A stretch of DNA of 34,362 nucleotides from Saccharomonospora azurea NA-128 (GTDB taxonomy: Bacteria; Actinomycetota; Actinomycetes; Mycobacteriales; Pseudonocardiaceae): positions 2,318,702 to 2,353,063 of the forward strand of contig NZ_CM001466.1 in assembly GCF_000231055.2 (NCBI RefSeq). Direction: 5' to 3'. Under the pieces are notes generated by a model. It had not been told where the DNA came from, made no database searches, and saw only the letters and a list, made by a program, of their open reading frames with translations. The translations under genes were made by a program, and so were the position numbers. Each line of letters starts with the position of its first letter. The stretch's first letter is position 1. This document shows positions 3,434-33,895 of this stretch, piece by piece.

Positions 3434-3574
3434 GTGTCCGCGCGTGGCGCACGCGTGTCCGCACCTCCCGCACGTCGGCGCCCCCGAGGCGTCTCCCGAA
3501 CTCCCGACTCGACGTCCCGCAACGGCGAACACGCGTCGTCGAAGTGCAAACACGCGTGCGTGACACGCGGACAC
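3434..3574. repeat. 21-bp phased repeat locus 1 (2 + 3 units)
   Basis: Two minus-orientation units (GTGTCCGC cores at 3434 and 3455) face away from three plus-orientation units (GCGAACAC at 3525, GCAAACAC at 3546, GCGGACAC at 3567). Core spacing within each array is exactly 21 bp. A decayed half-unit lies at about 3463-3483. The locus fills the gap between two convergent genes; its outer units end within about 15 bp of both stop codons. The 62 bp between the arrays are GC-rich and show nothing else. Confidence 0.9.
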
Positions 3575-3586
3575 GATGTTCGGGGC

Positions 3587-4819
3587 TCAGCGGTGGGCTG
3601 TCGCGGACGGGGTGAAGCGCACCGGGAGCGAGGTCAGGTGCCGGTTCCACAACGCCGGCGTGAACGTCAGCTCCTCCACCGGAACCGCGACCGTGACGTC
3701 GTCGAATGCGTACAGTGCGGTCTCGACCGCGATACGTGCGATCAGCCGCCCCGCACGCTGCGCCGGGCAGGCATGGGAACCCGCGCTGAACGACAGGTAG
3801 GCGCGGTTGCCGATCTCCAGCCACGGGTCGTTGGTGCGCACGCGGTAGTCCGCGTTGCCCGCCGCGAAACTGAGGATGACCGCGTCCCCGCGCCGGATCG
3901 GTTGACCGGCGAGCTCGCAGTCGGCCGCCGCGTAGCGACCCATCAGGTTCGCCACGGGCGGGTCGCGCCACAGCACCTCGTCGAGGGCCTCGTCGATCCC
4001 GAGTCGACCGCCGCGCATCCGCGCGGTGAACCGGCGGTCGGTCAGCATCAGACGCAACGCCATCGCGATCCAGATGCCGGTGACCTCGTAGCCCATGCCG
4101 ATCACCATCATCATGGCGTGCAGTACCTCGTCGTCGCTGCGCAACGAGGGGTGCCGCACGAACTTCGAGGTCAAATCATCCTGCGGTCGAGCCCGCCTGT
4201 CCTGCAGCAACGCGACGAGCAGCCGCTGCATCGAGTCGTCGGCGAAGTACGACTCGATGCCCGCCAACAGGGTCGCCCGCAGTTTCTCCTGGTCCTCAGT
4301 GGACACGCCGAGGAGCGACAGGATCACCAGCATGGGGATGGCGGCGGAATACTCGCTCACGAGGTCCGCGTGGCCGCGCATGGAGAACTCGTCGAGCAGG
4401 CCAATGCAGATCTGCTCGACGGTCCTGCGCAGGCGGTGTTCGTCGAGGTCGTCGAAGCCCTCCTCGACCGGAGCGCGCAACCGTCGGTGCTTCTCGCCGT
4501 CGGCGTAGACGGCGTTCTCCAGCGGTGACAGCAACGCCGCCAGCGGCGCGTCCGGCGGGATGACGCCGCTCGTGTACTCGCGCCAGCTCCGCGGGTCGTG
4601 GGAGAACAGCCGTTCGTTGCGAGCGACCTGGCAGATCTCGGAGTGCCCCATCACGAGCCACCCGTTGACCTGCGGCAACAGCTCCACCGGGGCGACCTGG
4701 CCCCAGCGGGCTCGCAGTTCGCTGTACACAGCCTGCGGGTTCTGCGAGTTCACGATGTGCGACAGCGGCGTCAGCCCGGTCATCTCGGCCAGCGTCCGCT
4801 GCTGCGGCGACGTCGTCAT
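3587..4819 (-). CDS. cvnE: Conservon cytochrome P450, CYP157-like, atypical motifs
   Basis: This 410-residue P450 is the last gene of the conservon and overlaps cvnD by 4 bp (ATGA). The heme-ligand loop FSAGSHACPA carries Cys351, and the C-helix His/Arg pair (H111, R115) is present. The K-helix, normally ExxR, reads EVLW at 281-284. The I-helix, normally AGxET/T, reads MGYEVT at 242-247, so the first threonine is replaced by valine. Loss of ExxR was described for CYP157C1 of a Streptomyces conservon, so this is probably a related family rather than a decayed gene; the frame is intact and full length. Substrate and redox partner are unknown. It may act as a sensor or regulator rather than a monooxygenase (inference). 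Confidence 0.9.
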   Translation of the reverse strand: MTTSPQQRTLAEMTGLTPLSHIVNSQNPQAVYSELRARWGQVAPVELLPQVNGWLVMGHSEICQVARNERLFSHDPRSWREYTSGVIPPDAPLAALLSPLENAVYADGEKHRRLRAPVEEGFDDLDEHRLRRTVEQICIGLLDEFSMRGHADLVSEYSAAIPMLVILSLLGVSTEDQEKLRATLLAGIESYFADDSMQRLLVALLQDRRARPQDDLTSKFVRHPSLRSDDEVLHAMMMVIGMGYEVTGIWIAMALRLMLTDRRFTARMRGGRLGIDEALDEVLWRDPPVANLMGRYAAADCELAGQPIRRGDAVILSFAAGNADYRVRTNDPWLEIGNRAYLSFSAGSHACPAQRAGRLIARIAVETALYAFDDVTVAVPVEELTFTPALWNRHLTSLPVRFTPSATAHR

Positions 4820-5415
4820 GCGACCTCCGAGTTGTTCCGCACCGCGATGGCGTACTCCACCAGTTTGATGAGCGTCTGCGCCGACGACTTCCGCTCGCGC
4901 GCGTCGCAGAACACGATCGGCGTCTCCGGGAGCAGGTCCAGCGCGTCCCGGAGCTGTTCCGTGTCGTACTGCGGCGAGTTCGGGAACTGGTTGACCGCGA
5001 CCGCGAACGGCACCTTGGTGTGCAGCTCCAGCTGGTCGAACACCTCGAAACTGTCCTCCAGCCTGCGCGGATCCACCAGGACGAGCGCGCCCACGGCACC
5101 GTCGGCCAGGCCCTCCCACAGGTTCCAGAACCTCTTCTGCCCCGGCGTGCCGAAGAGGTACAACACGATCTCCGAGCTCAGCGTGATGCGACCGAAGTCC
5201 ATGGCCACCGTGGTGGTGCTCTTGCTGTCCAGCCCGGCGAGGGAGTCCACACCGACGCTCGCGGCCGTCATGGTCTCCTCGGTGCGCAGCGGTGCGATCT
5301 CGCTCACCGAGCCGATCAGCGTCGTCTTGCCCACGCCGAAGGCTCCGACAACGAGGATCTTGACCGACTGGATGACGGTCGAGGACACATAACGCTCAGA
5401 GCTTTCGGAGCCCAT
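4816..5415 (-). CDS. cvnD: Conservon Ras-like GTPase (CvnD)
   Basis: This 199-residue small GTPase has a P-loop GAFGVGKTT at 24-32. Switch II reads FGTPGQKRFW, where TPGQ replaces the Ras DxxGQ motif. The base-recognition motif appears as NQFP in place of NKxD, as in other bacterial MglA/CvnD-like GTPases. In conservons, CvnD works with the sensor-like CvnA and the CvnB/CvnC proteins as a G-protein-like switch. The start at 5415 gives a 20-bp overlap with cvnC, with GGAG just upstream inside the cvnC coding region. The stop overlaps the start of the P450 gene. Confidence 0.95.
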   Translation of the reverse strand: MGSESSERYVSSTVIQSVKILVVGAFGVGKTTLIGSVSEIAPLRTEETMTAASVGVDSLAGLDSKSTTTVAMDFGRITLSSEIVLYLFGTPGQKRFWNLWEGLADGAVGALVLVDPRRLEDSFEVFDQLELHTKVPFAVAVNQFPNSPQYDTEQLRDALDLLPETPIVFCDARERKSSAQTLIKLVEYAIAVRNNSEVA

Positions 5416-5752
5416 TCAGCACTTTCTCCAGCAGGTCGATTTCAGGGATGACGAGTCGCTGCGGGCTGGACCGCACCACGAGGTGTCCCGTGTCGATCAG
5501 GTCCGACGCGAGCACCACGACCACGCTCACCGGCAGGCGAAGGTGCGCCGCGGCCTCGGCGACCGACAGCACGCCTCGGCACACGTTCACAAGGGATCGC
5601 TTCTCCCGGCTGGTCGACACCGGGAGGAGCGAGTCGGGGTTGGCCACCAGCAGGGTTTCCGGCCGCAGCGTGTTCCGGGAGGGATGAGCGCGGCCGCCCG
5701 TGATGACGTAGGGCCGGACCGGCCCGTCCTGGTACTCCTCGGAGTGGCTCAT
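5396..5752 (-). CDS. cvnC: Conservon DUF742 protein (CvnC)
   Basis: A 118-residue DUF742 protein. The hallmark VRPYVITGGR lies near residues 12-21. It is followed by a winged-helix-like C-terminal half containing a hydrophobic segment (LPVSVVVVLASDLIDTG) and the closing LLEKVLNGLRKL. In conservons CvnC accompanies CvnB and the GTPase; its biochemical role is not firmly known. It begins 2 bp after cvnB stops and overlaps cvnD by 20 bp, so all five genes read as one transcript with translational coupling. Confidence 0.95.
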   Translation of the reverse strand: MSHSEEYQDGPVRPYVITGGRAHPSRNTLRPETLLVANPDSLLPVSTSREKRSLVNVCRGVLSVAEAAAHLRLPVSVVVVLASDLIDTGHLVVRSSPQRLVIPEIDLLEKVLNGLRKL

Positions 5753-5754
5753 GG

Positions 5755-6150
5755 TCAGCGTGCGCGCGTGGGCGTGCTGAGCGTCCGCTCACCGATCTGG
5801 AGCACTTGGAGCTGCATCTGCTGGGCGATCAGGCCCGGGTCGATGACGGGGTCGGTGACCACGGCGAGCCGCGACCCGTCGCCGGCGCCGCGCACGAACA
5901 GGAAACCGCCGTCGAACTCGACCATCACCTGCTTCGGGTCACCACCGGAGCCGAACTCGTCACCGACGCCGCGACCGAGCGAGGTCAGCCCCGCGCACGC
6001 GGCCGCGAGCTTGTCGGCGAGGTCGGTGGCGGTCTGCTCGGTCTTCACCTTCAGCAGACCGTCGGACGTCAGCACGATCGCGTGGCGAACGCCGCGCACG
6101 CTCCTGATCTGCTCCAGCATCCAGCTGTTGTCACCGGCGTGGGCAACCAT
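5755..6150 (-). CDS. cvnB: Conservon roadblock/LC7 protein (CvnB)
   Basis: A 131-residue roadblock/LC7 domain protein. Visible family features are the N-terminal SWMLEQIRSVRGVRHAIVLTSDGLLK strand-helix segment, the ADKLAAACAGLTSLGRG helix and the later VMVEFDGGFLFVRGAGDGSRLAVVT sheet. Roadblock proteins of this group bind MglA/CvnD-type GTPases and influence nucleotide cycling. The A of its ATG is also the last base of the cvnA stop (TAATG overlap at 6150), which implies coupled translation with the sensor kinase-like gene. Confidence 0.95.
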   Translation of the reverse strand: MVAHAGDNSWMLEQIRSVRGVRHAIVLTSDGLLKVKTEQTATDLADKLAAACAGLTSLGRGVGDEFGSGGDPKQVMVEFDGGFLFVRGAGDGSRLAVVTDPVIDPGLIAQQMQLQVLQIGERTLSTPTRAR

Positions 6151-7703
6151 TACTCCTCCGAAGTGTCACGAGAGGCGGACGGTGTGTTCGGGGTGGCGGC
6201 GATCCGGTTGGACGCGCCGGTGTCCGAACTGAGGAAGGCACTCATCCACTGCCCTGCCTGCTCCGCTGATTGTTGGGGGTCGGCCGGGATCGCGGGGATG
6301 TCCATGGTGATCTCGCTGCTGTTCTCGACGACGGCCTCGCCACGGCGGGACCGTCGGCGGGGCAGCACGGGTAGGTCGGCCTGCGGACCGGCGGGTTTCT
6401 CCTTCGGCTCCTCACGCTGAGCGGGAGCCGGCGTGGGCGCGGGAGCCGGAGCCGGCGCGGGAGGAGGCGTGGGAGCGGGGTCGGGCAACGGCAACTGCTG
6501 CGACTGTGGCACGGTCTGCGTCGGGACCGCCCCCTTCACCACGGGCTTGAGGTTGTCGGCCGTGCTGTGCTGCCGGGAGAGGGCGAGCTGCCCGCTCATC
6601 GCGGCGTGCCCGGGCGGCAACGGCTCGGTCAGCTCGGACGGCACCATCACGATGGCACGCACACCGCCGTAGACGGACTCACCGAGGTCGACCCGGAACC
6701 CGTAGCGACGCGCGTAGGTGCCCACCGACGGCAGGCCGGTCTGCGGTACCTCGCCGAGCGTGAACAGGTCGTGCACCGTCTCGCCCGAGGCGATGATCCT
6801 GGCCTGTTCGAGCCGGCGGTCGTCCATGCCGACCCCGCAGTCGTCGATCTCGATCACGGCGCCGCGTTGGACGTGGCGCAGCGTGACCAGCACGTTCGTG
6901 GTGGGCGGAGAGGACTGCGCCGCGTTGGCCAGCAGCTCGGCGACGATGTGGATGAGCGGTTCGACCACCCGCGCGGTGACGGCGATGGCGGGGTCACCGG
7001 AGGCCTCCACCCGCTGGTAGGCGGTAATCCGACCGGCGGCACCACGCACGACGTCGGACAACGCCAGCGCCTCGTTCCACTGCTGCCCCGGCCGTTCACC
7101 ACACAGGGCGGCGAGCGACTGGGCGTACCGCGCCTGCTGCGCGGCGGCGTGGTCGACGCGCATGCTGGTCTCCAGCACGTCCGGATCGTTCGGGTGCCGG
7201 CTGACCATCCGGCCGGCTTCCTCCTGCATCCGGTGCGCCGAGGTCTGAACCTTGCGCGCGAGCGACACCACGGCGGAGTGCACCGCACTGCGTTGCGCGT
7301 CATAGACGTCCCGCGCGTTGCCGACCAGCGACTTCATGCGTTCGTACTCGGCGGCCGCCTCCGGGCGAGGCGGTGTGTCCGGGAGCGGCGGCGGCGTCCG
7401 CCCGCTGGAGTACGCCTCCATGTACCGCAGGAACACGTCCTGCACCTCGCGCTGCGCGGCGAACTCGTCCGCCAGCGCCTGCCGGCACGCGGCCATGGCG
7501 CCGGCGGCGCGCACGGTCAGGGCGGCGAACACTCCCAACGCGGCGAGCGCCAGAACCCCGGGTATGAGCCACCACAGCTGCCCGGAGTCACCGACGGCCA
7601 GAAAGACTGAGGCGACGACCACGTAACCGGCGACGAGGGCGACGCACGCCCATCCGAGCGGACTCGGTCCACGCCGCGTAGTCGGTGAGTTTTCCATGAT
7701 CAT
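6150..7703 (-). CDS. cvnA: Conservon sensor kinase-like ATPase (CvnA)
   Basis: This 517-residue membrane protein heads the conservon. Two transmembrane helices (about 16-36 and 45-65) precede a coiled linker. A conserved Asp-His pair (D184, H185) occupies the usual conservon position. The HATPase domain has an N-box ELLANAAQSS at 256-265 and a G1 box DDCGVGM at 287-293. After the ATPase comes a long proline/alanine-rich tail, with alternating Ala-Pro at about 410-428, and then a low-complexity C terminus. ATG codons at 7703 and 7697 are both possible; neither has a clear ribosome site. Whether it autophosphorylates is not evident from the sequence. It is divergent from the endonuclease V gene. 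Confidence 0.92.
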   Translation of the reverse strand: MIMENSPTTRRGPSPLGWACVALVAGYVVVASVFLAVGDSGQLWWLIPGVLALAALGVFAALTVRAAGAMAACRQALADEFAAQREVQDVFLRYMEAYSSGRTPPPLPDTPPRPEAAAEYERMKSLVGNARDVYDAQRSAVHSAVVSLARKVQTSAHRMQEEAGRMVSRHPNDPDVLETSMRVDHAAAQQARYAQSLAALCGERPGQQWNEALALSDVVRGAAGRITAYQRVEASGDPAIAVTARVVEPLIHIVAELLANAAQSSPPTTNVLVTLRHVQRGAVIEIDDCGVGMDDRRLEQARIIASGETVHDLFTLGEVPQTGLPSVGTYARRYGFRVDLGESVYGGVRAIVMVPSELTEPLPPGHAAMSGQLALSRQHSTADNLKPVVKGAVPTQTVPQSQQLPLPDPAPTPPPAPAPAPAPTPAPAQREEPKEKPAGPQADLPVLPRRRSRRGEAVVENSSEITMDIPAIPADPQQSAEQAGQWMSAFLSSDTGASNRIAATPNTPSASRDTSEE

Positions 7704-7964: not shown

Positions 7965-8663
7965 ATGGAGATCCAGCTCGCTGAGCCGTGGCCGACCACG
8001 GTGGCCGAGGCGGTCGCCGTGCAACGACGTCTGCGCCACCGGGTCCGGGCCGGCGACGACGCGGGGAGCCCCGTGCGCACCGTCGCCGGCGTCGACGTGG
8101 CCTACGCCGCCGACTCGGACCGCCTCGCCGCGGCGGTCGTGGTACTCGACCACACCACTCTGGACGTGCTGGAGACCTCGACCGTGGTGACCACCGCGGA
8201 GTTCCCCTACGAACCGGGACTGTTCGCGTTCCGGGAACTCCCCACGCTGGTGACGGCGTTGCGCGGCCTGCGGACGGTGCCCGACCTGATCGTGTGCGAC
8301 GGGCACGGCCTGGCCCACCCGCGCCGGTTCGGCCTCGCCTGCCACCTCGGGATACTCGCCGACGTCCCGACCTTCGGTGTGGCGAAGAACGTGCACGTCG
8401 GCGAGTTCGTGCCCCCGGCGTCACAACGCGGCGCGACCTCGCCGCTCACGGTCGGCGGCGAGGTCGTCGGGGCCGCGGTGCGGACGCGCAGCCGTGTCAA
8501 ACCGGTGTTCGTCTCCGTAGGACACCGGATCAGCCTCGACACGGCGTGTGCTCACACACTCACGCTGAGCACGCACTACCGGCTTCCGGAGACCACCCGG
8601 CACGCCGATCACCTCTCGCGCGAGGTGCTGGCGGGCCGGATCAGCCCGACCGTTGCAGGGTGA
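7965..8663 (+). CDS. nfi: Endonuclease V (deoxyinosine endonuclease)
   Basis: Endonuclease V cuts DNA one bond 3' of deoxyinosine and related lesions, starting repair of deaminated adenine. The 232-residue product shows the family order: VAGVDVAYA with the first catalytic Asp, FAFRELP with the catalytic Glu, ICDGHGLAHPR-like VCDGHGLAHPRRFG with the second Asp, and GVAKN with the conserved Lys. The late VSVGHRISLDTA segment is also typical. I start it at the ATG at 7965, which follows GGGGGT and gives normal family length; an in-frame ATG at 7932 would add 11 residues. The 3' end overlaps the end of the convergent ZIP pseudogene by 23 bp. Confidence 0.93.
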   Translation: MEIQLAEPWPTTVAEAVAVQRRLRHRVRAGDDAGSPVRTVAGVDVAYAADSDRLAAAVVVLDHTTLDVLETSTVVTTAEFPYEPGLFAFRELPTLVTALRGLRTVPDLIVCDGHGLAHPRRFGLACHLGILADVPTFGVAKNVHVGEFVPPASQRGATSPLTVGGEVVGAAVRTRSRVKPVFVSVGHRISLDTACAHTLTLSTHYRLPETTRHADHLSREVLAGRISPTVAG

Positions 8664-9134
8664 ACGCGGCGAGGAACCCCACGGTGGTGATGAGTCCGGT
8701 GAGGACGTGGGTGCGCTGGAACGCCTCGGGAATCATCGTGTCGGCCACCATGGCGAGGATGCCGCCCGCGGCGACCGCCGTGATCACCGCGATGGTGGCT
8801 GCGGGCGCGCCGTCCAGCAACAGGCTGCCGAGTGAGGCGGCCGCGGCACACGCGAGCGCGATGCCCGTCCACACTCCGAAGACGTAGCCCGCGCGGCGCC
8901 CGGCCCGCCTCATGCCCGCGGCACTCGACAATCCCTCGGGAACGTTGGAGACGACGATGGCGGCGAGGACGGTGATCCCCACCGTGCCGCTGCCCAGGAC
9001 GGACAGTCCGAGGACGACCGTTTCCGGTATGCCGTCGAGCAGGGCGCCGAAGGCGATCGCCGCTCCGCTGCCCCGAGCAGGAGGGCCGCCCCGGCGACCA
9101 GTCCCCACAGTCCCGCCTCCAACCACACCGCCAT
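8641..9134 (-). pseudogene. ZIP-family metal transporter, internally deleted and frameshifted
   Basis: The start is convincing: ATG at 9134 follows GAGGAGGG and encodes MAVWLEAGLWGLVAGAALLLG, a typical first helix. Around 9065-9085 the reading frame must change to continue with GSGAAIAFGALLDGIPE, a later ZIP helix containing the metal-binding-type GALLDGIPE segment. From there to the stop at 8641 the C-terminal half is well conserved (SNVPEGLSSAAGM, GGILAMVADTMIPEAF). Relative to normal family members of roughly 240 residues, about 80-100 residues between these points, covering the second and third helices and the loop, are absent. Both missing protein and frame change argue for a deletion rather than a simple sequencing error. 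The protein is probably non-functional. Confidence 0.8.
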
Positions 9135-9177: not shown

Positions 9178-9266
9178 GTGTCCGCAGTCTGCGTACGCGT
9201 GTTCGCGTCGCACGGCGCGAACACACGTACGGGAAGCGCGGACACGCGTGCGGGGAGCGCGGACAC
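9178..9266. repeat. 21-bp phased repeat locus 2 (2 + 3 units)
   Basis: Minus-orientation cores lie at 9178 (GTGTCCGC) and 9199 (GTGTTCGC); plus-orientation cores lie at 9217 (GCGAACAC), 9238 and 9259 (both GCGGACAC). All steps within an array are 21 bp. Only 10 bp separate the arrays, so the locus can fold into a long imperfect hairpin. It sits between the ZIP pseudogene and the TPP enzyme, which are divergent. Confidence 0.92.
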
Positions 9267-9331: not shown

Positions 9332-11122
9332 ATGACCGAGACGGTCGGCGACTACCTACTCCAGCGGCTCCGGGACTGGGACGTGCAGCAGGTCTTCGGC
9401 TACCCCGGCGACGGCATCAACGGCATCGTCGCCGCGTTCGGCAAGGCGGACAACCAGCCCCGGTTCGTGCAGTCGCGGCACGAGGAGATGTCGGCGTTCC
9501 AGGCGGTGGGGTATGCGAAGTTCAGCGGCGAAGTTGGTGTCTGCCTCGCCACGTCCGGCCCCGGGGCGATCCACCTGCTCAACGGCCTGTACGACGCGAA
9601 GCTGGACCACGTGCCGGTGGTCGCTCTCGTGGGCCAGACCGCGCGCAGCGCGATGGGCGGCAGCTACCAGCAGGAGATCGACCTCCAGGCGCTGCTGAAG
9701 GACGTCGCGTCGGAGTACCTGGTGGAGGTCAACGTCGCACAGCAGCTGCCCAACGCCCTCGACCGGGCCTTTCGCACGGCGCTGGCCCGCAAGGCACCGA
9801 CCGCGGTGATCATCCCGGCGGACCTGCAGGAGCAGGAGTACACCCCGCCCGAACACGCGTTCAAACAGGTTCCCTCCAGCCCGCCGAGCACGCCGAGAGC
9901 GGTGGTCCTCCCTCCCGAGGACGAGCTCGCCCACGCCGCCGAGGTCCTGAACGAGGGTCGACGCGTGGCGATCCTGGCCGGGCAGGGTGCCCGCAACGCC
10001 GCCGAGGAGCTCGCCCGCACCGCCGACACGCTCGGCGCCGGGGTGGCGAAAGCGTTGCTGGGCAAGGACGTCTTGCCGGACGACCTGCCGTACGTGACGG
10101 GCTCGATCGGTCTGCTGGGCACCAAGCCGAGCTACGAGTTGATGCGCGACTGCGACACGCTGCTCATCGTGGGTTCGAACCTGCCGTACTCGCAGTTCCT
10201 GCCGGAGTTCGGCCAGGCGCGGGCCGTGCAGATCGACATCGACGGCGGCCGGATCGGCATGCGCTACCCGACCGAGGTGAACCTCGTCGGCGAGGCGAAG
10301 GCCACGCTTCGTGCGCTGCTGCCGCTGCTGTCGCACAAGACCGACCGGTCGTGGCGGGATACGGTCGAACGCAACGTCGCCGACTGGTGGTCGACCCTGC
10401 GCGATCAGGCTCTCCTCGACGCCGCGCCGATCAACCCGATGCGCATCGTTCACGAACTGTCCCACCGCGTCCCCGAAGACGCGATCGTGACCGCCGACTC
10501 GGGCTCCTCGACCAACTGGTACGCCCGCAACCTGCGGATGCGGGGCCGCATGCGGGGCTCGCTGTCCGGGACGCTCGCCACGATGGGCGCGGGAGTGCCG
10601 TACGCGCTCGGCGCCAAGTTCGCCCACCCCGAGCGGCCGGTGGTCGCGCTCGTCGGCGACGGCGCGATGCAGATGAACGGGATGGCCGAACTCGTCACCA
10701 TCGCGCGGTATCGGAACCTCTGGCAGGACCCGCGGTTGGTCGTGTGCGTGTTCAACAACCACGACCTGAACCAGGTGACGTGGGAGTTGCGCGCCATGGG
10801 TGGAGCGCCGAAGTTCGAGGAGTCGCAGAGCCTGCCCGACGTGCCGTACGCGGAGTTCGCCAAGCTCGTCGGCCTGGAGGGCATCACCGTCGAAGAGCCG
10901 GGTGACCTCGCCAGGGCGTGGGACGTGGCGCTCACGGCCGACCGGCCCGTGGTCCTCGACGTGCACTGCGACCCCGAGCTGCCGCCGATCCCACCCCACG
11001 CGACGTTCGACCAGGTCAAGTCGATGACGGAGGCGTTGGTGAAGGGCGACCCCAACGCCTGGCACCTGCTCGTGCAGGGCGCGAAGACCAAGGCGCAGGA
11101 GGTGCTGTCGCGCTCACGGTGA
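9332..11122 (+). CDS. Thiamine pyrophosphate enzyme, pyruvate oxidase/dehydrogenase (quinone) type
   Basis: This 596-residue member of the TPP family also including acetolactate synthase and PoxB has three domains. The N-terminal PYR domain contains the catalytic Glu in RHEEMSAFQAVGYAK (E51 or E52) and GYPGDGINGI. The central domain runs from about 190 to 330. The C-terminal PP domain carries the TPP/Mg motif GDGAMQMNG to NN at about 441-470. The sequence resembles pyruvate:quinone oxidoreductases, which make acetate and CO2, more than acetolactate synthases. No small ilvN-like subunit is nearby, which agrees. Substrate assignment is moderate. The start at 9332 follows GAGGAGGG; the longer upstream frame runs through the repeat and ZIP region and is rejected. 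A terminator follows the stop. Confidence 0.85.
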   Translation: MTETVGDYLLQRLRDWDVQQVFGYPGDGINGIVAAFGKADNQPRFVQSRHEEMSAFQAVGYAKFSGEVGVCLATSGPGAIHLLNGLYDAKLDHVPVVALVGQTARSAMGGSYQQEIDLQALLKDVASEYLVEVNVAQQLPNALDRAFRTALARKAPTAVIIPADLQEQEYTPPEHAFKQVPSSPPSTPRAVVLPPEDELAHAAEVLNEGRRVAILAGQGARNAAEELARTADTLGAGVAKALLGKDVLPDDLPYVTGSIGLLGTKPSYELMRDCDTLLIVGSNLPYSQFLPEFGQARAVQIDIDGGRIGMRYPTEVNLVGEAKATLRALLPLLSHKTDRSWRDTVERNVADWWSTLRDQALLDAAPINPMRIVHELSHRVPEDAIVTADSGSSTNWYARNLRMRGRMRGSLSGTLATMGAGVPYALGAKFAHPERPVVALVGDGAMQMNGMAELVTIARYRNLWQDPRLVVCVFNNHDLNQVTWELRAMGGAPKFEESQSLPDVPYAEFAKLVGLEGITVEEPGDLARAWDVALTADRPVVLDVHCDPELPPIPPHATFDQVKSMTEALVKGDPNAWHLLVQGAKTKAQEVLSRSR

Positions 11123-16836: not shown

Positions 16837-16853
16837 TTCGTTACGCTAACGAA
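16837..16853. promoter_or_regulatory. 17-bp palindrome TTCGTTACGCTAACGAA
   Basis: Perfect 7-bp arms (TTCGTTA/TAACGAA) flank CGC. It covers the end of the aldose epimerase gene and lies 2 bp upstream of the amidohydrolase start codon. It looks like a dimeric repressor site and shares TTCGTTAC with the dyad at 23145-23159. Confidence 0.5.
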
Positions 16854-17757
16854 TGTCGACGAGGATGCCCCACGACGCTCCCCACGACGCGCCGGGTTCC
16901 AACTCGATGAGGTCGGTTTTCGAGTTGAGCGCGTCGGCCGGACACGTCATCGGCTCGATCGCGATCGCCCGTCCCCGGCCGGGGAAGTCCGACGGCGTGA
17001 AGACCTGCACCCACCCGAAATCGGGGTCGGCCCACAGGTCCACCGTCGTGTCGTGGTGCGACAGCAGGTGGTGGTACCGGCCGTCGTCGTAGGCCGCGAG
17101 CCCGCCGAACGCGGTGTCGAGGTCCAGTCCACCGACGATACGGCCCTCGCGCAGGTCGTAGTCGGTGCCCTCGACGTCGATCTCGTCGCCGAAGGGCAGC
17201 TGCTCGTCGGCGACGTACGGGCGCACGCGCGACGCCGCGAGCGTGAGCGTCAGTTCGTCGGTGGGCACGTCACCGATGCGCAGGTACGGATGCGTGCCGA
17301 CGCCGAAGCCGATCGGCTTGTCGCCCTCGTTGCGCACCTCGTGGGTGACCGTGATCCCGCGCGGGGCGAGGTCGTAGGTGATCTCGGCGTGCAGCGGCAC
17401 CGGCCAGCCCTGTTCGGCGCCGACCTCGACGGCGAGCCGGATGAACCACTCGCCGTGTTCCAGCAGCTCCCACTCCTTGTCGCGCACGAGCCCGTGGATG
17501 GCGTTGCCGCGGGCCTCCTCGGTGACCGCGAGCTCCTGCGGTTCGCCGTCGAAGGTCCAGCGCGCGCCCTTCGTGCGGTTCGGCCACGGCAGCAGCACCT
17601 GCCCGGCCGCCTTCGGGGGCTGCTCCTCGGCCGCGAACGTCTCCAGGTACGGCACATTGTTGATCTCGAACGCCCGCAGGCCCGCTCCGATCTCGGTGAC
17701 CACGGCACGGGCGTTGCCCCTGGTCAGTTCGAACTGTTCCCCCGTCGGATTCGCCAT
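16846..17757 (-). CDS. Aldose 1-epimerase
   Basis: A 303-residue galactose-mutarotase-fold protein that interconverts alpha and beta anomers of an aldose or a related hexose derivative. Recognised features are LLPWPNRTKGARW at about 56-68, an HGLVRD segment with the first active-site His, GVGTHPYLRIG with the second His, and AIEPMTCPADALN, whose Glu is the usual catalytic base. This variant resembles the Actinobacteria-type mutarotase-like enzymes. ATG at 17757 gives MANPTGEQFELTRG; the frame continues upstream through the repeat locus, but there it encodes no family sequence. It is followed 11 bp later by the amidohydrolase gene. Confidence 0.9.
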   Translation of the reverse strand: MANPTGEQFELTRGNARAVVTEIGAGLRAFEINNVPYLETFAAEEQPPKAAGQVLLPWPNRTKGARWTFDGEPQELAVTEEARGNAIHGLVRDKEWELLEHGEWFIRLAVEVGAEQGWPVPLHAEITYDLAPRGITVTHEVRNEGDKPIGFGVGTHPYLRIGDVPTDELTLTLAASRVRPYVADEQLPFGDEIDVEGTDYDLREGRIVGGLDLDTAFGGLAAYDDGRYHHLLSHHDTTVDLWADPDFGWVQVFTPSDFPGRGRAIAIEPMTCPADALNSKTDLIELEPGASWGASWGILVDIR

Positions 17758-17775
17758 GCCGGAGACGATACCGAG

Positions 17776-17872
17776 CGTCCCGGAACTGCGAACACGCGTG
17801 CGTGACTGGCGGACACGAGCCCCTGTGCACCGTGTCCGCGCCGCACGCACGGGTGTTTGCGCTTCCGGGACG
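17776..17872. repeat. 21-bp phased repeat locus 3 (2 + 2 units, arms facing inward)
   Basis: Plus-orientation cores at 17788 (GCGAACAC) and 17809 (GCGGACAC) are followed by minus-orientation cores at 17832 (GTGTCCGC) and 17853 (GTGTTTGC). The spacing is 21 bp in each array. The arms extend to a 42-bp imperfect inverted repeat (34 of 42 positions match) around a 13-nt loop; CGTCCCGGAA at 17776-17785 is matched at 17863-17872. Array direction is the reverse of the other three loci. Confidence 0.92.
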
Positions 17873-17876
17873 GGCG

Positions 17877-19202
17877 TCAGCTCGGCTTCGCCTCGGTGGG
17901 TGCGCGATACCGCCAGAACGCCGGCAGCAGCGCCACCGCCACCACGACGCCGATCACCACGAGCACACCGCCGCCCGCCGTCGCCGCGCTGGTGCCCACG
18001 GCCGCGGCGGCCCAGCCGTGCGTCATGTCGGCGAGCCTCGGCCCGCCGGCCACCACCACGGTGAACGTCCCCTGCATCCGGCCGCGCATCTCGTCGGTGG
18101 TCGCCTGCTGGAGGATCGCCTGCCGGAAGATCGCGCTGACCATGTCGGCGACACCGCCGAGCGCGAGGAAGAACACCGCGAGCCACAGCGACTGCGCCAA
18201 CCCGAACCCGACCATCGCGAGGCCCCACACCCCGATCGACACCGCGACCGCGACCCCGTGCCGACCGATGCGGTGTGCCCAACCGGACATGAGCCCGAGC
18301 AGCAACGCACCGAGCGGGATGCCGGCGTACAGCCAGCCGAGCGCCGTGCCTCCGCCCGGCGGATCGCCGAACGTGCGCTCGGCCATCTCGGGGAACAACG
18401 CCCTCGGCATCCCCGCCACCATCGCCACGACGTCCACCACGAACGACGCGAGGAGCACCTTCTGCGTCGCGAGGTAGCGGAAGCCCTGGAGCACGTCGCG
18501 CAGCCCGGCGGCCCGGATCTTGCCCGACAACGGCGGCAGCGGCGGCAGCTTCCACACCGCCCACAGCACGGCCACCAACGCCAGGGTGTCGACGAGGTAC
18601 AGCGTCGACAGCCCGACCACCGGCAGCAACGCCCCGGCCAGCATGGGCCCGAACACGGCGCCGAACGTGGCCATCGTGCCGGTCAGCGCGGCGGCGGACG
18701 GCAGCAGGTGCTCGGGCACCACGCGGGCGACCACGGCCTGCCGCGTGGGCATGTTGATCGCGAAGAACGCCTGGTTGACGCTCAGCAGCGCGAGCACCAC
18801 CCACACCGAGTCGAGCCCCACGAACGCCTGCGCCCACAGCAGCAGGGCCGCCAGCGCGATGCCGATGTTGGAGACGAGCAGCAGCACCCGCCGGTCGACC
18901 GTGTCGGCGATCGCCCCGCCCCACAGCCCGAACACCAGCAGCGGGACGAGCCCGAACAGCCCGGTGAGCCCGACGTAGGCGGACGAGCCGGTGATGTCGT
19001 AGATCTGCTTGGGCACGGCGACGGCCGTGAGCTGGCTGCCGAGCGCCGTGACGATCGAGCTCACCCACAGCCGCCGGAACGCGGGGATGCGCAGCGGCCG
19101 CCGGTCGGCGACGACCGCACCCACGGCGCCCACGATCCTGCGGAGCCGTCCCGTGGCCGGTGGTGGCGTTTCGGAGGGGTCTGTGGAGGTCTGCTCGGTC
19201 AC
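17877..19202 (-). CDS. MFS exporter (EntS/MFS_3-like)
   Basis: A 441-residue major facilitator with about 12 hydrophobic helices. It starts FRRLWVSSIVTALGSQLTAVAVPKQIYDITGSSAYVGL and contains GGAIADTVDRRVLL (the loop 2-3 signature), MPTRQAVVARVVP, and in the second half AIFRQAILQQATTDEMRGRMQG. These segments fit the enterobactin-exporter-like MFS_3 group. The substrate is unknown. GTG 19202 is taken as start; an alternative GTG at 19259 is also in frame, and neither has a good ribosome site. A palindrome TTAGCTCGGCTAA lies just upstream of the chosen start. The stop codon lies 4 bp from the repeat locus. Confidence 0.85.
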   Translation of the reverse strand: MTEQTSTDPSETPPPATGRLRRIVGAVGAVVADRRPLRIPAFRRLWVSSIVTALGSQLTAVAVPKQIYDITGSSAYVGLTGLFGLVPLLVFGLWGGAIADTVDRRVLLLVSNIGIALAALLLWAQAFVGLDSVWVVLALLSVNQAFFAINMPTRQAVVARVVPEHLLPSAAALTGTMATFGAVFGPMLAGALLPVVGLSTLYLVDTLALVAVLWAVWKLPPLPPLSGKIRAAGLRDVLQGFRYLATQKVLLASFVVDVVAMVAGMPRALFPEMAERTFGDPPGGGTALGWLYAGIPLGALLLGLMSGWAHRIGRHGVAVAVSIGVWGLAMVGFGLAQSLWLAVFFLALGGVADMVSAIFRQAILQQATTDEMRGRMQGTFTVVVAGGPRLADMTHGWAAAAVGTSAATAGGGVLVVIGVVVAVALLPAFWRYRAPTEAKPS

Positions 19203-28736: not shown

Positions 28737-28744
28737 GTCGTCAC

Positions 28745-29920
<1,176 letters not shown>

Positions 29921-29929
29921 TTACTTCGC

Positions 29930-29962
29930 AGTGCACCGAGCTCAACCTCGCCCTGGTGCACT
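29930..29962. promoter_or_regulatory. Inverted repeat between divergent sugar genes
   Basis: AGTGCACC (29930-29937) and GGTGCACT (29955-29962) are perfect 8-bp arms with a 17-bp spacer, between the SQD1-like and GtrA-like genes. It is a candidate regulatory site; no regulator gene is adjacent. Confidence 0.45.
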
Positions 29963-30071
29963 TCTCCCACCTGCTAGCTCTACCGTGTACCACTCGAGCC
30001 CACGGATCAACCCGCACGGAGAATACGGACGTTCCGCGGCCACCCGAATGGCGGGTATGCACAATGGATAG

Positions 30072-30569
30072 GTGAGCACCGCTACCACGGCAGCCGAGGA
30101 GCCCTCCATGGCATCGGGCCGCCGACCCCGTCTGCTGGTCCGCCTGTTCCGGGCCGCGACGAGTTCCGCACTGGCCACCGGCATCAGCCAGGTCAGCCTC
30201 ATCGGACTGTTGTGGTGGGGGGCCACGCCCATGGTCGCCAGCGCGGTGGCGTTCGTCGCCGGAGCGATCCCGAACTACTTCCTCGCGCGGCGCTGGGCGT
30301 GGGGCCGGCGCGGCACGCCGACCGTCACCGGGGAACTCCTGCCCTACCTTCTGGTGATCGGCCTCGCCGGCCTGGCGTCGGTGGGTCTGACCACCCTGGC
30401 CGGTCGGCTCACCGAACCGCTCGACCTTTCCGGCTTCGTGCGGATCGTGGTACTCGACGCGGTCTTCCTCACCGGCTACGCGATCGTCTTCGTCATGAAG
30501 TTCGCACTGCTCGACCGGCTCGTTTTCCACCGCGAAGAACGTACTCGCGGATCCAAGTCCCCAACATGA
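30072..30569 (+). CDS. GtrA-family membrane protein (lipid-linked sugar translocation)
   Basis: A 165-residue protein with four transmembrane helices and the GtrA pattern: FRAATSSALATGISQVSLIGLLW, FVAGAIPNYFLARRWAWGRRG, a long third helix, and LTGYAIVFVMKFALLDRLVFHR. GtrA proteins are thought to flip undecaprenyl-phosphate sugars across the membrane. The GTG at 30072 gives MSTATTAAEEPS; ATG 30108 with GAGGAG upstream is an equally reasonable start and would shorten it to 153 residues. The last 77 bp overlap the convergent glycosyltransferase gene. Confidence 0.88.
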   Translation: MSTATTAAEEPSMASGRRPRLLVRLFRAATSSALATGISQVSLIGLLWWGATPMVASAVAFVAGAIPNYFLARRWAWGRRGTPTVTGELLPYLLVIGLAGLASVGLTTLAGRLTEPLDLSGFVRIVVLDAVFLTGYAIVFVMKFALLDRLVFHREERTRGSKSPT

Positions 30570-32745
30570 CGCGCGCGTAGTTGGCGCCGTACTTGATGCT
30601 GCGGCCCTTCTTGCTGCTGCCGTTGTTGCGCAACCGCATCGTCATCGGCACCTCCAGCACCCGCGCGCCGCGGGCCATGACGCCGAGCAGCAACTCCGAC
30701 GACTGGTACTGCGGTTCCCGCAGAGTGACCGACGTGGCGAGTTCGGCCCTCATGGCACGGAAACCGAACGACGTGTCGGTGACCTTCTGCAGCGTCAGCA
30801 CGGTCGCGATCCACGAGAACACGCGCACACCCAGCCAGCGGATCGCACTGTCGTGCTGGTAGCTGCCGAGCCTGCGGGACCCGGTGACGAAGTCGGCCGT
30901 GTCGTCCAGCAGCGGCTTCACGAGCATCGGCATCTCGTTGTTGTCGTACTGGCCGTCGGCGTCGGTGGTGACGATGTAGCGCGCCCCGCACTCGGACGCG
31001 AGGTGGTAGCCGAGCCGCAGCGCCGCGCCCTGACCACGGTTACGCGGGGCCACGCACACGTACGCGCCCGCCTCGTGCGCCACCTCGGCGGTATTGTCGG
31101 TCGCGCCGTCGACCACGACGAGCGTGGACACCGGCAGGTCGCCGCAGTGGGTGGGCATGCCCCTCAGCACCGCGCCGATGCCCTTGGCCTCGTTGTAGGC
31201 GGCGATCACCACCACCAGCGGCGTCAGCGGGCTGTTGCCGTAGCGCTGCCGGAAGTCGGCCACCGCCTCGGCGTCGACGTCGTCGGGGTAGTCGTCCAAC
31301 GTGGTCCTCCGTGTTCCTGCCGCCGCGCCGGACGGCTCCTTGCGCGCCCCCAGCATCGCAGCGAGCCCGAGCGCGCCTCCGAGGGGGAGCAGCACCAGCG
31401 CGGGAAGTTGGTAGCGCCAGGAGAACTCGAACGACGCGGCTCCCAGCAGGATGATCAAACCACTTCCCGTGGCGAGGAATGCGGCCGACCTCAACCCGGA
31501 CCGGCGGGCCCGGCCCACACCGGCCGCCGCGATCAGCCCGCATACCGCGAACGCCGCCAGCAACGGACCCCACGTGTAGCCGCCGCCGAGCTGGTAGGTG
31601 CGGAGGAACGCCGCCAGATCCTGGTTCGCGCGCGGCGGCACGCCGTCGTAGGCGTACGTCATCGCGTTGTACGCCTCCAGGCTGGAGTCGCCGATGTTGT
31701 AGTACGGATACGAGAGCTGGAACTGCCAGCGTTCCACCGGCACGTCGTTGTGGTGGGTCCGCTTGATCGGATCGAAGTTCTTCACGAAGTCGCGCAGGAT
31801 CGACCCCACGAAGTCGACCGGCTGATTCAGCATCACTTCCTTGGCGAACTGGTTGGCCAGCTCCTCCTTGGACCGCGAGTCGGGCAACCCCTCGGCGGGC
31901 CAGTTCGGGTCGCCGTACACGAAGTGGGTGTAGTAGTCGATCCCGTGTCGTTCGTCGACCGGCTCGTCGGGGCAGAACAACTGCAGCCCCGCGTCGCCGG
32001 GAGGCAGTTCGGCGCAGTCGGCGATGCTGGCCGTGCGCCCGTAGAGCACGTTGCCGGTGGCTCCGGTCAGCCCCCAGTACCCGGCCTGCGAATAGAAGTA
32101 CGCCGAGTACGGGAACAGCACCGCCAGGACACCGAGGACACCCGCGGCGGTCCGCACACCGATGCGCTTCCACCCCGCCCTGCTGCGCCAGGCCCCGCCC
32201 GCCAGGACGAGATAGCCGACCATCGGCACCACGAGCGTGAACCCGATCGTGCGGGTGACGACCGCGAGCCCGAGCAGAATCCCGGCTCCCCCGGCCCGCC
32301 ACCACGTGGGCTCACCACGCCCGAGCAGCACCCACAGCATCCCCACGAGCAACGCCTGGAACCAGACCTCCGACATGAGGAGCGCTTCGATCTGCAGCTG
32401 GTAGGCGTCCAGCAGCACCGGCGCCGCGACGAGTGCGCCGATCCACCTCCGCGACGTGTGGCGCAGCGTCAACGCGTACAGCGACACCGCGAGCACCACA
32501 CCCACCACGTGCTGCACGGCCTGCACGAACGCGAGTCCCCCGAAGGCGAACAGCACCTTCAGCACGACCGTGTACCCGAGCGGGTTCAGGTCGGTGGGCC
32601 GCAACGCGTCCAGGTTGTTGAGGTACCGGAAGCTGTCGATGTACAGCAGCGCAGGCTCGTACGCCAGCCACACCAGCACACGGAGCGTGATGCCACCGGC
32701 GAGCAGAACGAACAACAACCAGTGGCGGCGGAGGAAGCCGGTCAC
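30493..32745 (-). CDS. Fused GT-C membrane glycosyltransferase and GT2 polyprenol-phosphate glycosyl synthase
   Basis: A 750-residue bifunctional protein. Residues 1 to about 460 form a polytopic domain with around 11 helices and an acidic residue (D37, in LLYIDSFRYL) in the first external loop, as in GT-C enzymes that use lipid-linked sugars. From about 510 to 720 lies a GT2 domain like dolichyl-phosphate mannose synthase: VVIAAYNEAKGIGAVLRG, VVDGATDNTAE, RNRGQGAALRLGY, and the DxD motif DADGQYD near 593. The fusion joins a charging enzyme to a transferase. Start is GTG at 32745, directly after the stop of the epimerase gene. Its last 77 bp overlap the GtrA gene. Confidence 0.85.
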   Translation of the reverse strand: MTGFLRRHWLLFVLLAGGITLRVLVWLAYEPALLYIDSFRYLNNLDALRPTDLNPLGYTVVLKVLFAFGGLAFVQAVQHVVGVVLAVSLYALTLRHTSRRWIGALVAAPVLLDAYQLQIEALLMSEVWFQALLVGMLWVLLGRGEPTWWRAGGAGILLGLAVVTRTIGFTLVVPMVGYLVLAGGAWRSRAGWKRIGVRTAAGVLGVLAVLFPYSAYFYSQAGYWGLTGATGNVLYGRTASIADCAELPPGDAGLQLFCPDEPVDERHGIDYYTHFVYGDPNWPAEGLPDSRSKEELANQFAKEVMLNQPVDFVGSILRDFVKNFDPIKRTHHNDVPVERWQFQLSYPYYNIGDSSLEAYNAMTYAYDGVPPRANQDLAAFLRTYQLGGGYTWGPLLAAFAVCGLIAAAGVGRARRSGLRSAAFLATGSGLIILLGAASFEFSWRYQLPALVLLPLGGALGLAAMLGARKEPSGAAAGTRRTTLDDYPDDVDAEAVADFRQRYGNSPLTPLVVVIAAYNEAKGIGAVLRGMPTHCGDLPVSTLVVVDGATDNTAEVAHEAGAYVCVAPRNRGQGAALRLGYHLASECGARYIVTTDADGQYDNNEMPMLVKPLLDDTADFVTGSRRLGSYQHDSAIRWLGVRVFSWIATVLTLQKVTDTSFGFRAMRAELATSVTLREPQYQSSELLLGVMARGARVLEVPMTMRLRNNGSSKKGRSIKYGANYARVMLGTWIREYVLRGGKRAGRAVRTS

Positions 32746-33690
32746 TCAGAACACTTTCTGCCTGTCGTTGTCGAGGAAGTACTGCCAGGTGGCGGCCAGG
32801 CCGTCACGCAGACTGAACGTCGGGCGGTACCCGATGGTCTCCGCGCTCCGCGCGATGTCGACGACGACCGCGGGCATCTCCCCGCCCGGCGCGGGCACGT
32901 GTTCCACCGGGATCGGCGCCCCGGTGACCTCGCGAACGGTGTCGATCAGCTCCAGCACCGACACCGACCGGCCCGCACCGACGATCGCCCTGCCGACGTG
33001 CTCGCTGTCCCACGCCGACTCGATCGCCCGCACCACGTCGTCGAGGAAGACGAGGTCACGCCGCTGCTGCCCGTCCCCGTAGACCTTCACCCCGCCGTCC
33101 GACAGAGCCGCCCGCATGAGCCGCGGCACGAAGCTGTCCTTGTGGCTCATCCCGGGGCCGTACACGTTGGTGAACCGCAGCGCGCACGCGGCCATGCCGT
33201 ACGTGCCCGCGTACCCGGACAGCAGCATCTCGCAGGCCGCCTTCGTGGCGCCGTACGGCGTGAGCGGCTGCAGCGGCATGTCCTCGGTGATGGTGCTCGT
33301 GCCGACGTCGCCGACCACCGCGTTGGTGGAGGCGAGCACGAACCGGCGGACGCCGTGCATCCGCGCCAGTTCCAGCAGCTCGTGGGTGATGCCGACGTTC
33401 TCCGCGTAGGTCTTCGCGGGCATCTCCTTGGAGCGCAGCACGGAGGTGATGGCCGCCAGGTGGACGATCCCGTCGGTGCCCGGCACCACGGCGCGCTCCC
33501 GCACCGCCGGGTCGGCCAGGTCGCCTTGGATCGCGACGACTCCCTCGTCGTGCACGGCGGCCGGCTCGCGGTCCACGATCGTCACCCGAGCGCCACGGCG
33601 CCGGAAGGCCGCGACGACCGCTCGTCCGATGAAGCCGCAACCACCGGTGACCACGACGTGAGGCGAGTCTGCATTCGTGGCGGAAGACAT
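32746..33690 (-). CDS. NAD-dependent nucleotide-sugar epimerase/dehydratase
   Basis: A 314-residue extended SDR enzyme. The Rossmann motif TGGCGFIGRA is at 15-24. The active site has ASTNAVVG and YGATKAACE (Tyr and Lys of YxxxK). YGPGMSHKDSFVPR and GDGQQRRDLVFLDDV are the usual UDP-sugar epimerase segments. It resembles UDP-glucose 4-epimerase or UDP-glucuronate-type enzymes; the sugar is not certain. Start ATG 33690 has no strong ribosome site. The stop TGA is directly followed by the GTG start of the glycosyltransferase, so the two form an operon and the epimerase probably supplies its donor sugar. Confidence 0.9.
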   Translation of the reverse strand: MSSATNADSPHVVVTGGCGFIGRAVVAAFRRRGARVTIVDREPAAVHDEGVVAIQGDLADPAVRERAVVPGTDGIVHLAAITSVLRSKEMPAKTYAENVGITHELLELARMHGVRRFVLASTNAVVGDVGTSTITEDMPLQPLTPYGATKAACEMLLSGYAGTYGMAACALRFTNVYGPGMSHKDSFVPRLMRAALSDGGVKVYGDGQQRRDLVFLDDVVRAIESAWDSEHVGRAIVGAGRSVSVLELIDTVREVTGAPIPVEHVPAPGGEMPAVVVDIARSAETIGYRPTFSLRDGLAATWQYFLDNDRQKVF

Positions 33691-33733
33691 GGAGTCAAAG
33701 TACCCGGTGCTCCGAGTGGTCCAACCCGTACCC

Positions 33734-33895
33734 GTGTCCGCGGTCCACGCACGTGTGTCCGCACTTCCCGTACGCGAGTTCGCAGATCACGGCCCCTCCT
33801 CCCCCGCACGGACGTCGCCGAGTGGCGGACACGCGTACGCCAGGCGCGGACACGGCGTCGTGGGGTGCGGACACGCGTACGCCAGTCGCGGACAC
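33734..33895. repeat. 21-bp phased repeat locus 4 (3 + 4 units)
   Basis: Three minus-orientation cores (33734, 33755 GTGTCCGC; 33776 GAGTTCGC) face away from four plus-orientation GCGGACAC cores (33825, 33846, 33867, 33888). All internal steps are 21 bp. Between the arrays is a 41-bp pyrimidine-rich stretch. This is the largest copy in the window. It lies between the start of the epimerase gene and the stop of the membrane protein gene, both on the minus strand. Confidence 0.93.

What the first reader, a model, noticed from the sequence alone, without database searches (positions are those of the whole stretch)
3434..33895. A dispersed intergenic repeat with strict 21-bp phasing, present at four sites
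Seen directly: 21 units with a core GCGRACAC (or reverse complement GTGTYCGC) occur at 3434, 3455, 3525, 3546, 3567; 9178, 9199, 9217, 9238, 9259; 17788, 17809, 17832, 17853; 33734, 33755, 33776, 33825, 33846, 33867, 33888 (33776 and a few others carry one changed base). Within every array the step is exactly 21 bp, two turns of B-DNA, although the last six bases of each unit vary. The core continues as ACGCGTRCG, a near-palindrome. All copies are intergenic and occur about every 6-16 kb. Constant phasing with variable spacers fits binding of a protein to one face of the helix, for instance a nucleoid or chromosome-organising factor, or a mobile REP-like element. I know of no described family with this form.
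Basis: seen in the sequence. Interest (0 to 1): 0.85.

Follow-up and report, generated by a model that had tools for sequence, protein, structure and literature searches.

The report
Helix-phased repeat arrays at gene ends
In a group of soil actinobacteria, some of the borders between genes, mostly just past gene ends, carry rows of a short DNA word repeated every two turns of the double helix; the sites keep to one side of the helix even where the DNA between them differs, which points to an unknown protein that assembles there.

Summary
In detail: 18 of the 21 listed units have exact cores, 3 have one changed base, all intergenic by gene prediction. A dinucleotide model gives 0.003 same-strand 21-bp core pairs per window; 9 are seen. 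The genome (size of Saccharomonospora azurea NA-128) holds 218 adjacent core pairs; seven other genus genomes hold 103-329 and five genomes of other genera in the family 5-126. In 295 other genomes drawn from the phylum the maximum is 2.

An arm is 2-9 head-to-tail 21-mers, GTGTCCGC-RNBYYV-CGYACGC; arms stand singly or as inverted pairs. The outermost core is exact in 87 of 87 sampled arms, the innermost in 41 of 87.

Key result: the gap between paired arms follows a 10.5-bp lattice (64 of 67 pairs within 2 bp). Paired arms do not covary. 59 of 86 arms face a gene 3' end, 45 of these within 30 bp. Sites are shared between species while unit number and spacers change.

Best reading: a clade-specific, one-face DNA-binding array for an unidentified protein at gene 3' borders. 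Mobile-REP and RNA-hairpin readings are disfavoured, not excluded.

The parts
3434..3475 (-). Array 1, left arm: two 21-mers GTGTCCGC...; outer end 4 bp after the stop codon of gene 2305-3429(+), an ABC-2 membrane protein by Pfam
3512..3574 (+). Array 1, right arm: three 21-mers ...GCGRACAC (3546 with one changed base); outer end 12 bp before the stop codon of gene 3587-4819(-). 62 bp between the arms' inner cores (about 5.9 turns)
   Evidence: the orthologous gap lacks the array in G003, G009, G001
9178..9206 (-). Array 2, left arm: two cores 21 bp apart, upstream of a predicted gene on the minus strand that ends at 8641 (start uncertain, 9108-9134; ZIP match below Pfam's cut-off)
9217..9266 (+). 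Array 2, right arm: three cores 21 bp apart, upstream of the TPP-enzyme gene 9332-11122(+); 10 bp between the arms (GTCGCACGGC), the common short-centre type
17775..17816 (+). Array 3, left arm: two units, upstream of the aldose-epimerase-like gene 16846-17757(-); here the two outer cores face each other ('>> <<')
   Evidence: the same '>> <<' arrangement in the orthologous gap of G003, G008 and G009; G010 has '<<<'
17832..17873 (-). Array 3, right arm: two units (17853 with one changed base), ending 3 bp before the stop codon of the MFS gene 17877-19133(-)
33734..33796 (-). Array 4, left arm: three units (33776 with one changed base), upstream of the epimerase-like gene 32746-33690(-)
33812..33895 (+). 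Array 4, right arm: four units; outer core ends 22 bp before the stop codon of gene 33918-(-). 41 bp between the arms' inner cores (about 3.9 turns)
   Evidence: arrays with other unit numbers in the orthologous gap of G003, G009, G001, G010 and none in G004, G008

Best explanation
These are clade-specific protein-binding arrays at gene borders. The unit is a 21-bp (two-turn) site whose fixed part is CGTGTCCGC with a weaker second contact (G-N-A-C) about 8-11 bp further on. A sequence-specific DNA-binding protein, not yet identified, binds each unit on the same face of the helix. It assembles inward from an obligatory outermost site just past a stop codon, and in paired arrays meets a mirror-image row so that all sites of both rows face the same way. 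Most likely this filament or patch marks and insulates the 3' border of transcription units: it blocks read-through and opposing transcription, or holds the supercoils of converging polymerases. Shown here: array anatomy, helical lattice, outer-core invariance, position past gene ends, sharing of sites between species, near-restriction to one clade in the genomes searched, no arm-arm covariation. Inferred: that a protein binds, its assembly order, and the insulating or transcription-stop role.
For: Spacing in the 1.05-Mb own-genome sample: 109 same-strand unit pairs at 21 bp and 54 at 42, at most 2 at any other distance up to 60 bp. Inter-arm gaps: of 67 distinct outward pairs from 11 genomes or record sets, 42 have gaps over 11 bp; the best period over 5-20 bp is 10.5 with R=0.86, reached by 0 of 2000 random sets. 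It holds in G000 (20 pairs, R 0.96), in the others (22 pairs, R 0.80), and without centres that contain a core (35 pairs, R 0.89); period 21 alone gives R 0.29 on an earlier set of 32. With a fitted offset 64 of 67 gaps lie within 2 bp of the lattice. Beyond the half-unit at each side, centres of equal length are mostly unlike in sequence. At two orthologous sites the gap differs between species but stays on the lattice: 41, 29 and 20 bp in G000, G009, G001 (gap 4); 30 and 10 bp in G000 and G009 (2423278; read). Outermost core exact GTGTCCGC in 87 of 87 arms, innermost in 41 of 87. Outermost units at orthologous sites: core 3 differences of 153, rest 88 of 221; positions 15, 17 and 18, which the search did not select for, 5 of 51. 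In the systematic 800-kb sample 24 of 32 arms have the outer end towards a gene 3' end, 20 of 24 within 30 bp of it; 0 of 8 for 5' ends. Replicated for 3'-facing arms in extra G000 loci (20 of 24), G008 (9 of 10), G001 (18 of 22), G009 (18 of 24), G003 (5 of 8), G031 (3 of 6).
Against: No binding protein was identified and nothing was measured at the bench. 27 of 86 arms with context face a gene 5' end, 8 of them in divergent gaps, so 3' location is a bias and not a rule. Three of 67 gaps (5, 48, 132 bp) are about half a turn off, and four sites in the whole-genome list have a 5-bp centre. Three paired arrays fold into very stable hairpins as RNA (z -4.6, -5.9, -6.7), so an RNA role for pairs cannot be excluded. 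Only 19 of 686 gaps in the systematic sample carry arms, so the system cannot be a general gene border. Four of 12 genus genomes have none or one adjacent pair (three of these four are only 82-83% complete), so it is dispensable. Pairs and arms are related by descent and are not fully independent data points; the core count at orthologous sites is biased because arrays were found by their core. Genes were called with a home-made finder.
Confidence: 0.5

Rival explanations
1. RNA-level bidirectional terminators or 3'-end stabilisers: the inverted arms form a long hairpin in the transcript of either neighbour.
For: Position right after stop codons, excess in convergent gaps (8 of 114 against 11 of 572 others; p 0.007), strong folding of arrays 1-3 (z -4.6, -5.9, -6.7).
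Against: Arms of a pair are not more complementary than shuffled pairs (41 pairs, 22.3 against 22.8 of 29, p 0.98; RNA pairing also below shuffled). 19 of 59 3'-facing arms are single, and four arms folded alone show no special structure (z -1.7 to 0.6). A 10.5-bp lattice of loop length has no meaning for RNA. At the gap 2412721 (neighbour's C-terminus looks like GroEL, by eye) a separate hairpin with a T-run stands between gene and array.
Confidence: 0.15
2. Non-autonomous mobile or selfish repeat (REP/BIME, MITE or MIRU-like), kept near gene ends because insertion there is harmless; the invariant outer cores are terminal repeats needed for movement.
For: High copy number, intergenic, inverted ends with invariant outer core, presence/absence differences between species (4 of 10 G000 sites empty in G003), one isolated locus in G191 that looks horizontally acquired.
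Against: Site sharing between species; Y1 transposase in only 4 of 12 genus genomes, absent from five of eight array-rich ones; no target duplication could be read by eye at empty sites; single arms lack a second end; mobility does not explain a helical lattice between the arms.
Confidence: 0.17
3. Topology sites in the manner of E. coli BIMEs: phased motifs ease wrapping by gyrase or another topology protein downstream of transcription units.
For: 3' ends and convergent gaps, 10.5-bp periodicity; E. coli REPs are gyrase targets and may relieve transcription supercoils (passage in PMC3733652).
Against: A strict core (exact in 87 of 87 outermost sites) is much more specific than a wrapping preference; restricted to one clade although gyrase is universal (recalled).
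Confidence: 0.1
4. Rho-utilisation or WhiA-type known-factor sites: either C-rich RNA for Rho, or arrays of the WhiA motif GACAC contained in GCGGACAC.
For: Sense strand is pyrimidine-biased (T 21% against A 8%, C 39% against G 33%). WhiA binds GACAC, apparently as a monomer, in Streptomyces (passages in PMC3781837); the genome has one WhiA.
Against: C barely exceeds G, and Rho reads RNA, so the DNA lattice would be unexplained. GACAC is only 5 of the 9 conserved bases; no exact core occurs in the 3.2-kb locus around whiA, although WhiA autoregulates in Streptomyces (passage); WhiA is far more widespread than the arrays (recalled).
Confidence: 0.06

Closest known systems
REP/BIME elements (E. 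coli, Pseudomonas; GTAG/CGTC superfamilies)
   Same: Dispersed, many copies, extragenic, mostly after genes and between convergent or co-directional genes; opposite-orientation neighbours (PMC3733652, abstract and passages).
   Different: The unit is not a palindrome but a 21-bp direct repeat in rows of 2-9; exact helical spacing; no matching distribution of Y1 transposase. A GTAG/CGTC tag was not tested.
MIRU of Mycobacterium (recalled, no call)
   Same: Actinobacterial intergenic repeats that touch stop codons and vary in tandem number (recalled).
   Different: MIRU units are several times longer (recalled) and not phased arrays of a short core.
Iteron and DnaA-box arrays
   Same: Rows of short direct repeats at helical spacing for a protein that assembles on DNA (recalled).
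   Different: Not at the origin: no exact core in the 4-kb region around dnaA, which holds three exact TTGTCCACA boxes and many near ones; about 200 core pairs around the genome.
TAACTGA direct repeats of Beggiatoaceae
   Same: Many sets (169) of short intergenic direct repeats, 2-6 copies, binding factor unknown (PMC4679880, abstract and section list seen).
   Different: Most of those lie just upstream of start codons and use another heptamer; these favour the bases after stop codons.
WhiA sites (GACAC)
   Same: The 5-mer GACAC lies inside GCGGACAC.
   Different: WhiA sites in Streptomyces are described as a short motif upstream of target genes with no further over-represented sequence (passages).

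Membership tests
REP/BIME | Each unit palindromic, able to form a stem-loop (definition seen in PMC12306157, passages) | tested here: not met
   Unit GTGTCCGCRNBYYVCGYACGC is asymmetric; four arms folded alone are close to shuffles (z -0.25, 0.64, -1.70, -0.69)
REP/BIME | Extragenic, many copies, downstream of genes | tested here: met
REP/BIME | Associated Y1 (RAYT) transposase | tested here: not met
   Y1_Tnp PF01797 in 4 of 12 genus genomes and absent from 5 of the 8 array-rich ones. G000 itself has one; whether it is RAYT-type was not tested
Intrinsic (Rho-independent) terminator | Hairpin followed by a T-run | tested here: not met
   7 terminator-like sites in the window (6 + 1, about 8.7 expected from shuffles), none within the four arrays
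RNA hairpin element | Compensatory change between arms | tested here: not met
   41 of 48 pairs (those from genomes with three or more), within-pair identity below shuffled
Known structured RNA (Rfam) | Match above gathering score | tested here: not met
   0 matches in the window
CRISPR array | Repeats of about 20-40 bp with long unique spacers (recalled) | tested here: not met
   The 21-bp period leaves 13 bp between cores, of which the 6 variable bases are constrained. The S. cyanea paper lists 0 CRISPR repeats (PMC3910552, passage), while G009, the genome of that size, holds 103 core pairs
DnaA-box cluster | TTGTCCACA-like boxes | tested here: not met
   The dnaA region has three exact TTGTCCACA boxes and many near ones; the array core is absent there and differs at two positions
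WhiA site array | Bound by WhiA | not testable with these tools
   only the GACAC overlap
Protein-binding phased array | Sites kept on one helical face independent of the DNA between | tested here: met
   3 of 67 gaps off the lattice
Protein-binding phased array | A protein that binds | not testable with these tools
   no protein identified

The most novel reading that the evidence does not exclude
A bacterial insulator system found only in the Saccharomonospora group: a dedicated DNA-binding protein nucleates at an invariant site beside stop codons and builds a one-face filament over scores of gene borders, with mirror rows in helical register that lock together, separating neighbouring transcription units and their supercoils.
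Probability: 0.25. Interest if true: 0.85.

Novelty: new variant of a known kind. Interest (0 to 1): 0.64.

Why it matters
Dispersed bacterial repeats are usually known as palindromes of unclear use. Here the sequence itself shows that helical geometry is maintained: spacing in whole helical turns is kept while the DNA in between turns over. That is strong evidence for a protein assembly on DNA at gene ends and gives a concrete probe (two or three 21-mers) to fish for the protein. If the border role holds, it would be a sequence-specific way for bacteria to separate converging genes, comparable in purpose to eukaryotic insulators or roadblock terminators.

Tried and rejected
Mobile REP with Y1 transposase: distribution does not fit. 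RNA hairpin: no covariation. Rfam family: none in the window. Plasmid or phage origin: no match for array 4, the only array tried, in either collection. Horizontal donor locus G191 as a clue to the protein: the 20-kb region holds metabolic genes and ordinary-looking regulators, nothing specific (translations read by eye). DnaA boxes: the dnaA region uses canonical boxes. WhiA: a lead only; no exact core in the whiA locus. Replication-strand or ori/ter bias: no clear pattern in 87 arms, a partly targeted sample. A lag scan for a different core in G005 was uninformative: its counts were high at all lags, probably because of runs of N, which I did not check. Literature: nine searches answered; one search found 171 papers holding one of two 9-mers, 15 listed, none of the listed titles on this subject. 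One search gave the WhiA paper.

Rows dropped: 4 of 91 arms that overlap predicted genes (two-core chance hits) and 1 at a stretch edge; likewise 3 of 18 arms in G008, 1 of 27 in G001 and 2 of 32 in G009 that overlap predicted genes; gaps of 11 bp or less (25 of 67) from the period test. Of those 25, 24 have 10 bp (in phase) and one 5 bp (half a turn off). The covariation test left out 7 of 48 pairs from genomes with fewer than three pairs. In one search gaps whose two flanking genes were not both found close together in the relative were not compared.
Full report
Observation. The four groups in the window are real and exact in step. 18 of the 21 listed units have an exact core and 3 have one changed base. 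By a dinucleotide model the window should hold 0.003 same-strand core pairs at 21 bp; it holds 9. All four lie between genes predicted by codon usage. The window lies at 2,318,702-2,353,063 of a 4,763,852-bp contig, a length that a paper lists for S. azurea NA-128 (PMC7990883, passages).

Anatomy. I fetched 40 systematic 20-kb stretches and 20 targeted ones of the same genome, with the window 1,054,282 bases. Chains of GTGTYCGC or its complement (one mismatch allowed) at exact 21-bp steps give 91 arms; 4 lie in predicted genes and were dropped. Arms have 2-9 cores. The unit, from 182 copies, is GTGTCCGC-RNBYYV-CGYACGC. The outer end is C-GTGTCCGC, often preceded by (G)ACAY, and conservation fades within about ten bases outside. 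The outermost core is exactly GTGTCCGC in 87 of 87 arms, middle cores in 84 of 95, the innermost in 41 of 87, where GTGTTCGC is the commonest other form (25). Two arms often stand back to back with the outer cores outside ('<< >>', 30 pairs in that sample); rarely face to face ('>> <<', as in array 3; 2 pairs).

Helical lattice. Within arms the step is 21 bp (109 unit pairs at 21, 54 at 42; no other distance up to 60 bp exceeds 2). Between the two arms of a pair each side first continues with the rest of the innermost unit; the DNA beyond that is not conserved, except in a common 10-bp type (GTCGCACGNC-like, either way round). Yet the gap takes the values 10, 20, 29-31, 39-41, 50-52, 62, 71, 82, 115, 126 and few others. 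Over 67 distinct pairs 64 lie within 2 bp of a 10.5-bp lattice with a fitted offset; the exceptions are 5, 48 and 132. For the 42 pairs with gaps over 11 bp the best period between 5 and 20 bp is 10.5 (R 0.86; 0 of 2000 random sets reach it), in this genome and in the others alike. A 21-bp period alone does not explain it (R 0.29 on the earlier 32 pairs), so single turns are added or lost. A whole-genome pattern search for every gap of 5-35 bp between exact cores found 50 places with gaps of 5, 10, 20, 26, 30 and 31 bp and once 8 (gaps of 26 and 31 mostly span an inner core); the search for 36-66 bp was cut at its end and not tallied. A few G001 centres are near-copies of each other; most centres of one length are unlike. 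At two orthologous sites the gap differs between species but stays on the lattice: 41, 29 and 20 bp (G000, G009, G001) and 30 and 10 bp (G000, G009; read). This is what protein-protein contact on one helical face predicts.

Not an RNA hairpin by covariation. In 41 pairs the two arms of a pair are no more alike than arms shuffled within species (22.3 against 22.8 of 29; p 0.98), and RNA pairing counts tell the same. Arrays 1-3 can fold strongly (z -4.6, -5.9, -6.7); the two arms of array 4 folded apart and two single arms elsewhere do not (z -1.7 to 0.6).

Place. In the systematic sample 24 of 32 arms turn their outer end to a gene 3' end, 20 of them within 30 bp; of 8 turned to a 5' end none is within 30 bp (p 5e-5). 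Over all 86 arms with context: 59 and 27; 45 of the 59 (76%) are within 30 bp against 28% for random placement in the same gaps. Other loci repeat it for 3'-facing arms: extra G000 loci, which were chosen for carrying inverted pairs, 20 of 24; G008 9 of 10; G001 18 of 22; G009 18 of 24; G031 3 of 6; G003 5 of 8. Convergent gaps carry arms most often: 8 of 114, co-directional 10 of 457, divergent 1 of 115 (convergent against the rest p 0.007). Genes were called with a home-made codon-usage finder, so single borders may be off.

Evolution. The adjacent-pair pattern CGTGTCCGC-N13-GTGTCCGC occurs 218 times here, 103-329 times in seven other genus genomes, 0-1 in four. In the family sample of 249 genomes 25 have any, and outside the genus only five have 5 or more (105, 126, 38, 29, 5); the reversed control pattern hits twice in all 249. 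Of 296 genomes drawn from the phylum, 5 match, this one included; the other four have 1-2. A longer two-unit pattern in a named genome collection hit Saccharomonospora sp. NB11, Prauserella shujinwangii and Qaidamihabitans albus. In a 194-kb syntenic stretch 92 gaps could be compared with G003: 6 carry arrays in both, 4 only here, none only in G003, 82 in neither (p 3e-7); with G009, of 77: 5, 4, 0 and 68. Unit number, orientation and spacers change at shared sites. In 17 comparisons of outermost units (copied by eye) the core differs at 3 of 153 positions, the rest at 88 of 221; positions 15, 17 and 18, which the search did not require, at 5 of 51 against 83 of 170 for the other rest positions. 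The core count is biased because arrays were found by their core; the second is not. The second half-unit differs by species group.

Mechanism. The data ask for a DNA-level explanation with a polar, sequence-specific, cooperative binder. The best-supported role, from position, is at the border after transcription units. Whether the bound array stops RNA polymerase, holds supercoils, or organises the chromosome is inference. At one site, whose neighbour I read by eye as GroEL, a hairpin with a T-run stands between gene and array, so there the array is an addition to a terminator and not the terminator itself.

Known families. REP/BIME elements share the place and the abundance but are palindromes and come with Y1 transposases; both defining features were tested and not met. 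Intrinsic terminators, Rfam RNAs, DnaA boxes, and phage or plasmid matches were tested and not met. WhiA's GACAC lies in the core and is the one named candidate, with little behind it.

Noticed in passing
L163, G000:2412721-2413001: Array outer core stands directly beside a strong hairpin with a T-run after a gene whose C-terminus looks GroEL-like (by eye); the same order in G003 and G009, where the G009 outer core has one change.
   Followed up: partly
L046, L055, L056, L033, L034: Exact 8-mer recurrence is as high at lag 42 as at lag 21 (144 and 140), suggesting that two spacer types alternate along arms; the spacer ranking by position also hints at it.
   Followed up: no
L121 (G191:C1:6283001-6303000): A genome of another genus holds 5 core pairs, all in one 2.6-kb stretch amid metabolic genes: probably a horizontally acquired segment that brought its arrays along.
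   Followed up: partly
G000:272589, 934215, 2317102, 4365145: Four sites with a 5-bp centre make a 21-bp inverted site GTGTYCGC-N5-GCGRACAC, half a turn off the usual lattice.
   Followed up: no
10-bp centres, e.g. window 9207-9216: The short centre is itself conserved and polar (GTCGCAC next to one core) in this genome and G001, with similar forms in G008 and G009; it may be a distinct site.
   Followed up: no
window 8641-9134: The ATG that relatives seem to use for this gene (about 9134) is out of frame with the predicted coding stretch here, so a small frameshift or sequence error is possible (by eye).
   Followed up: no
window 6419-6479: Imperfect 18-bp (6-bp) tandem repeats inside a predicted gene, not related to the arrays.
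   Followed up: no
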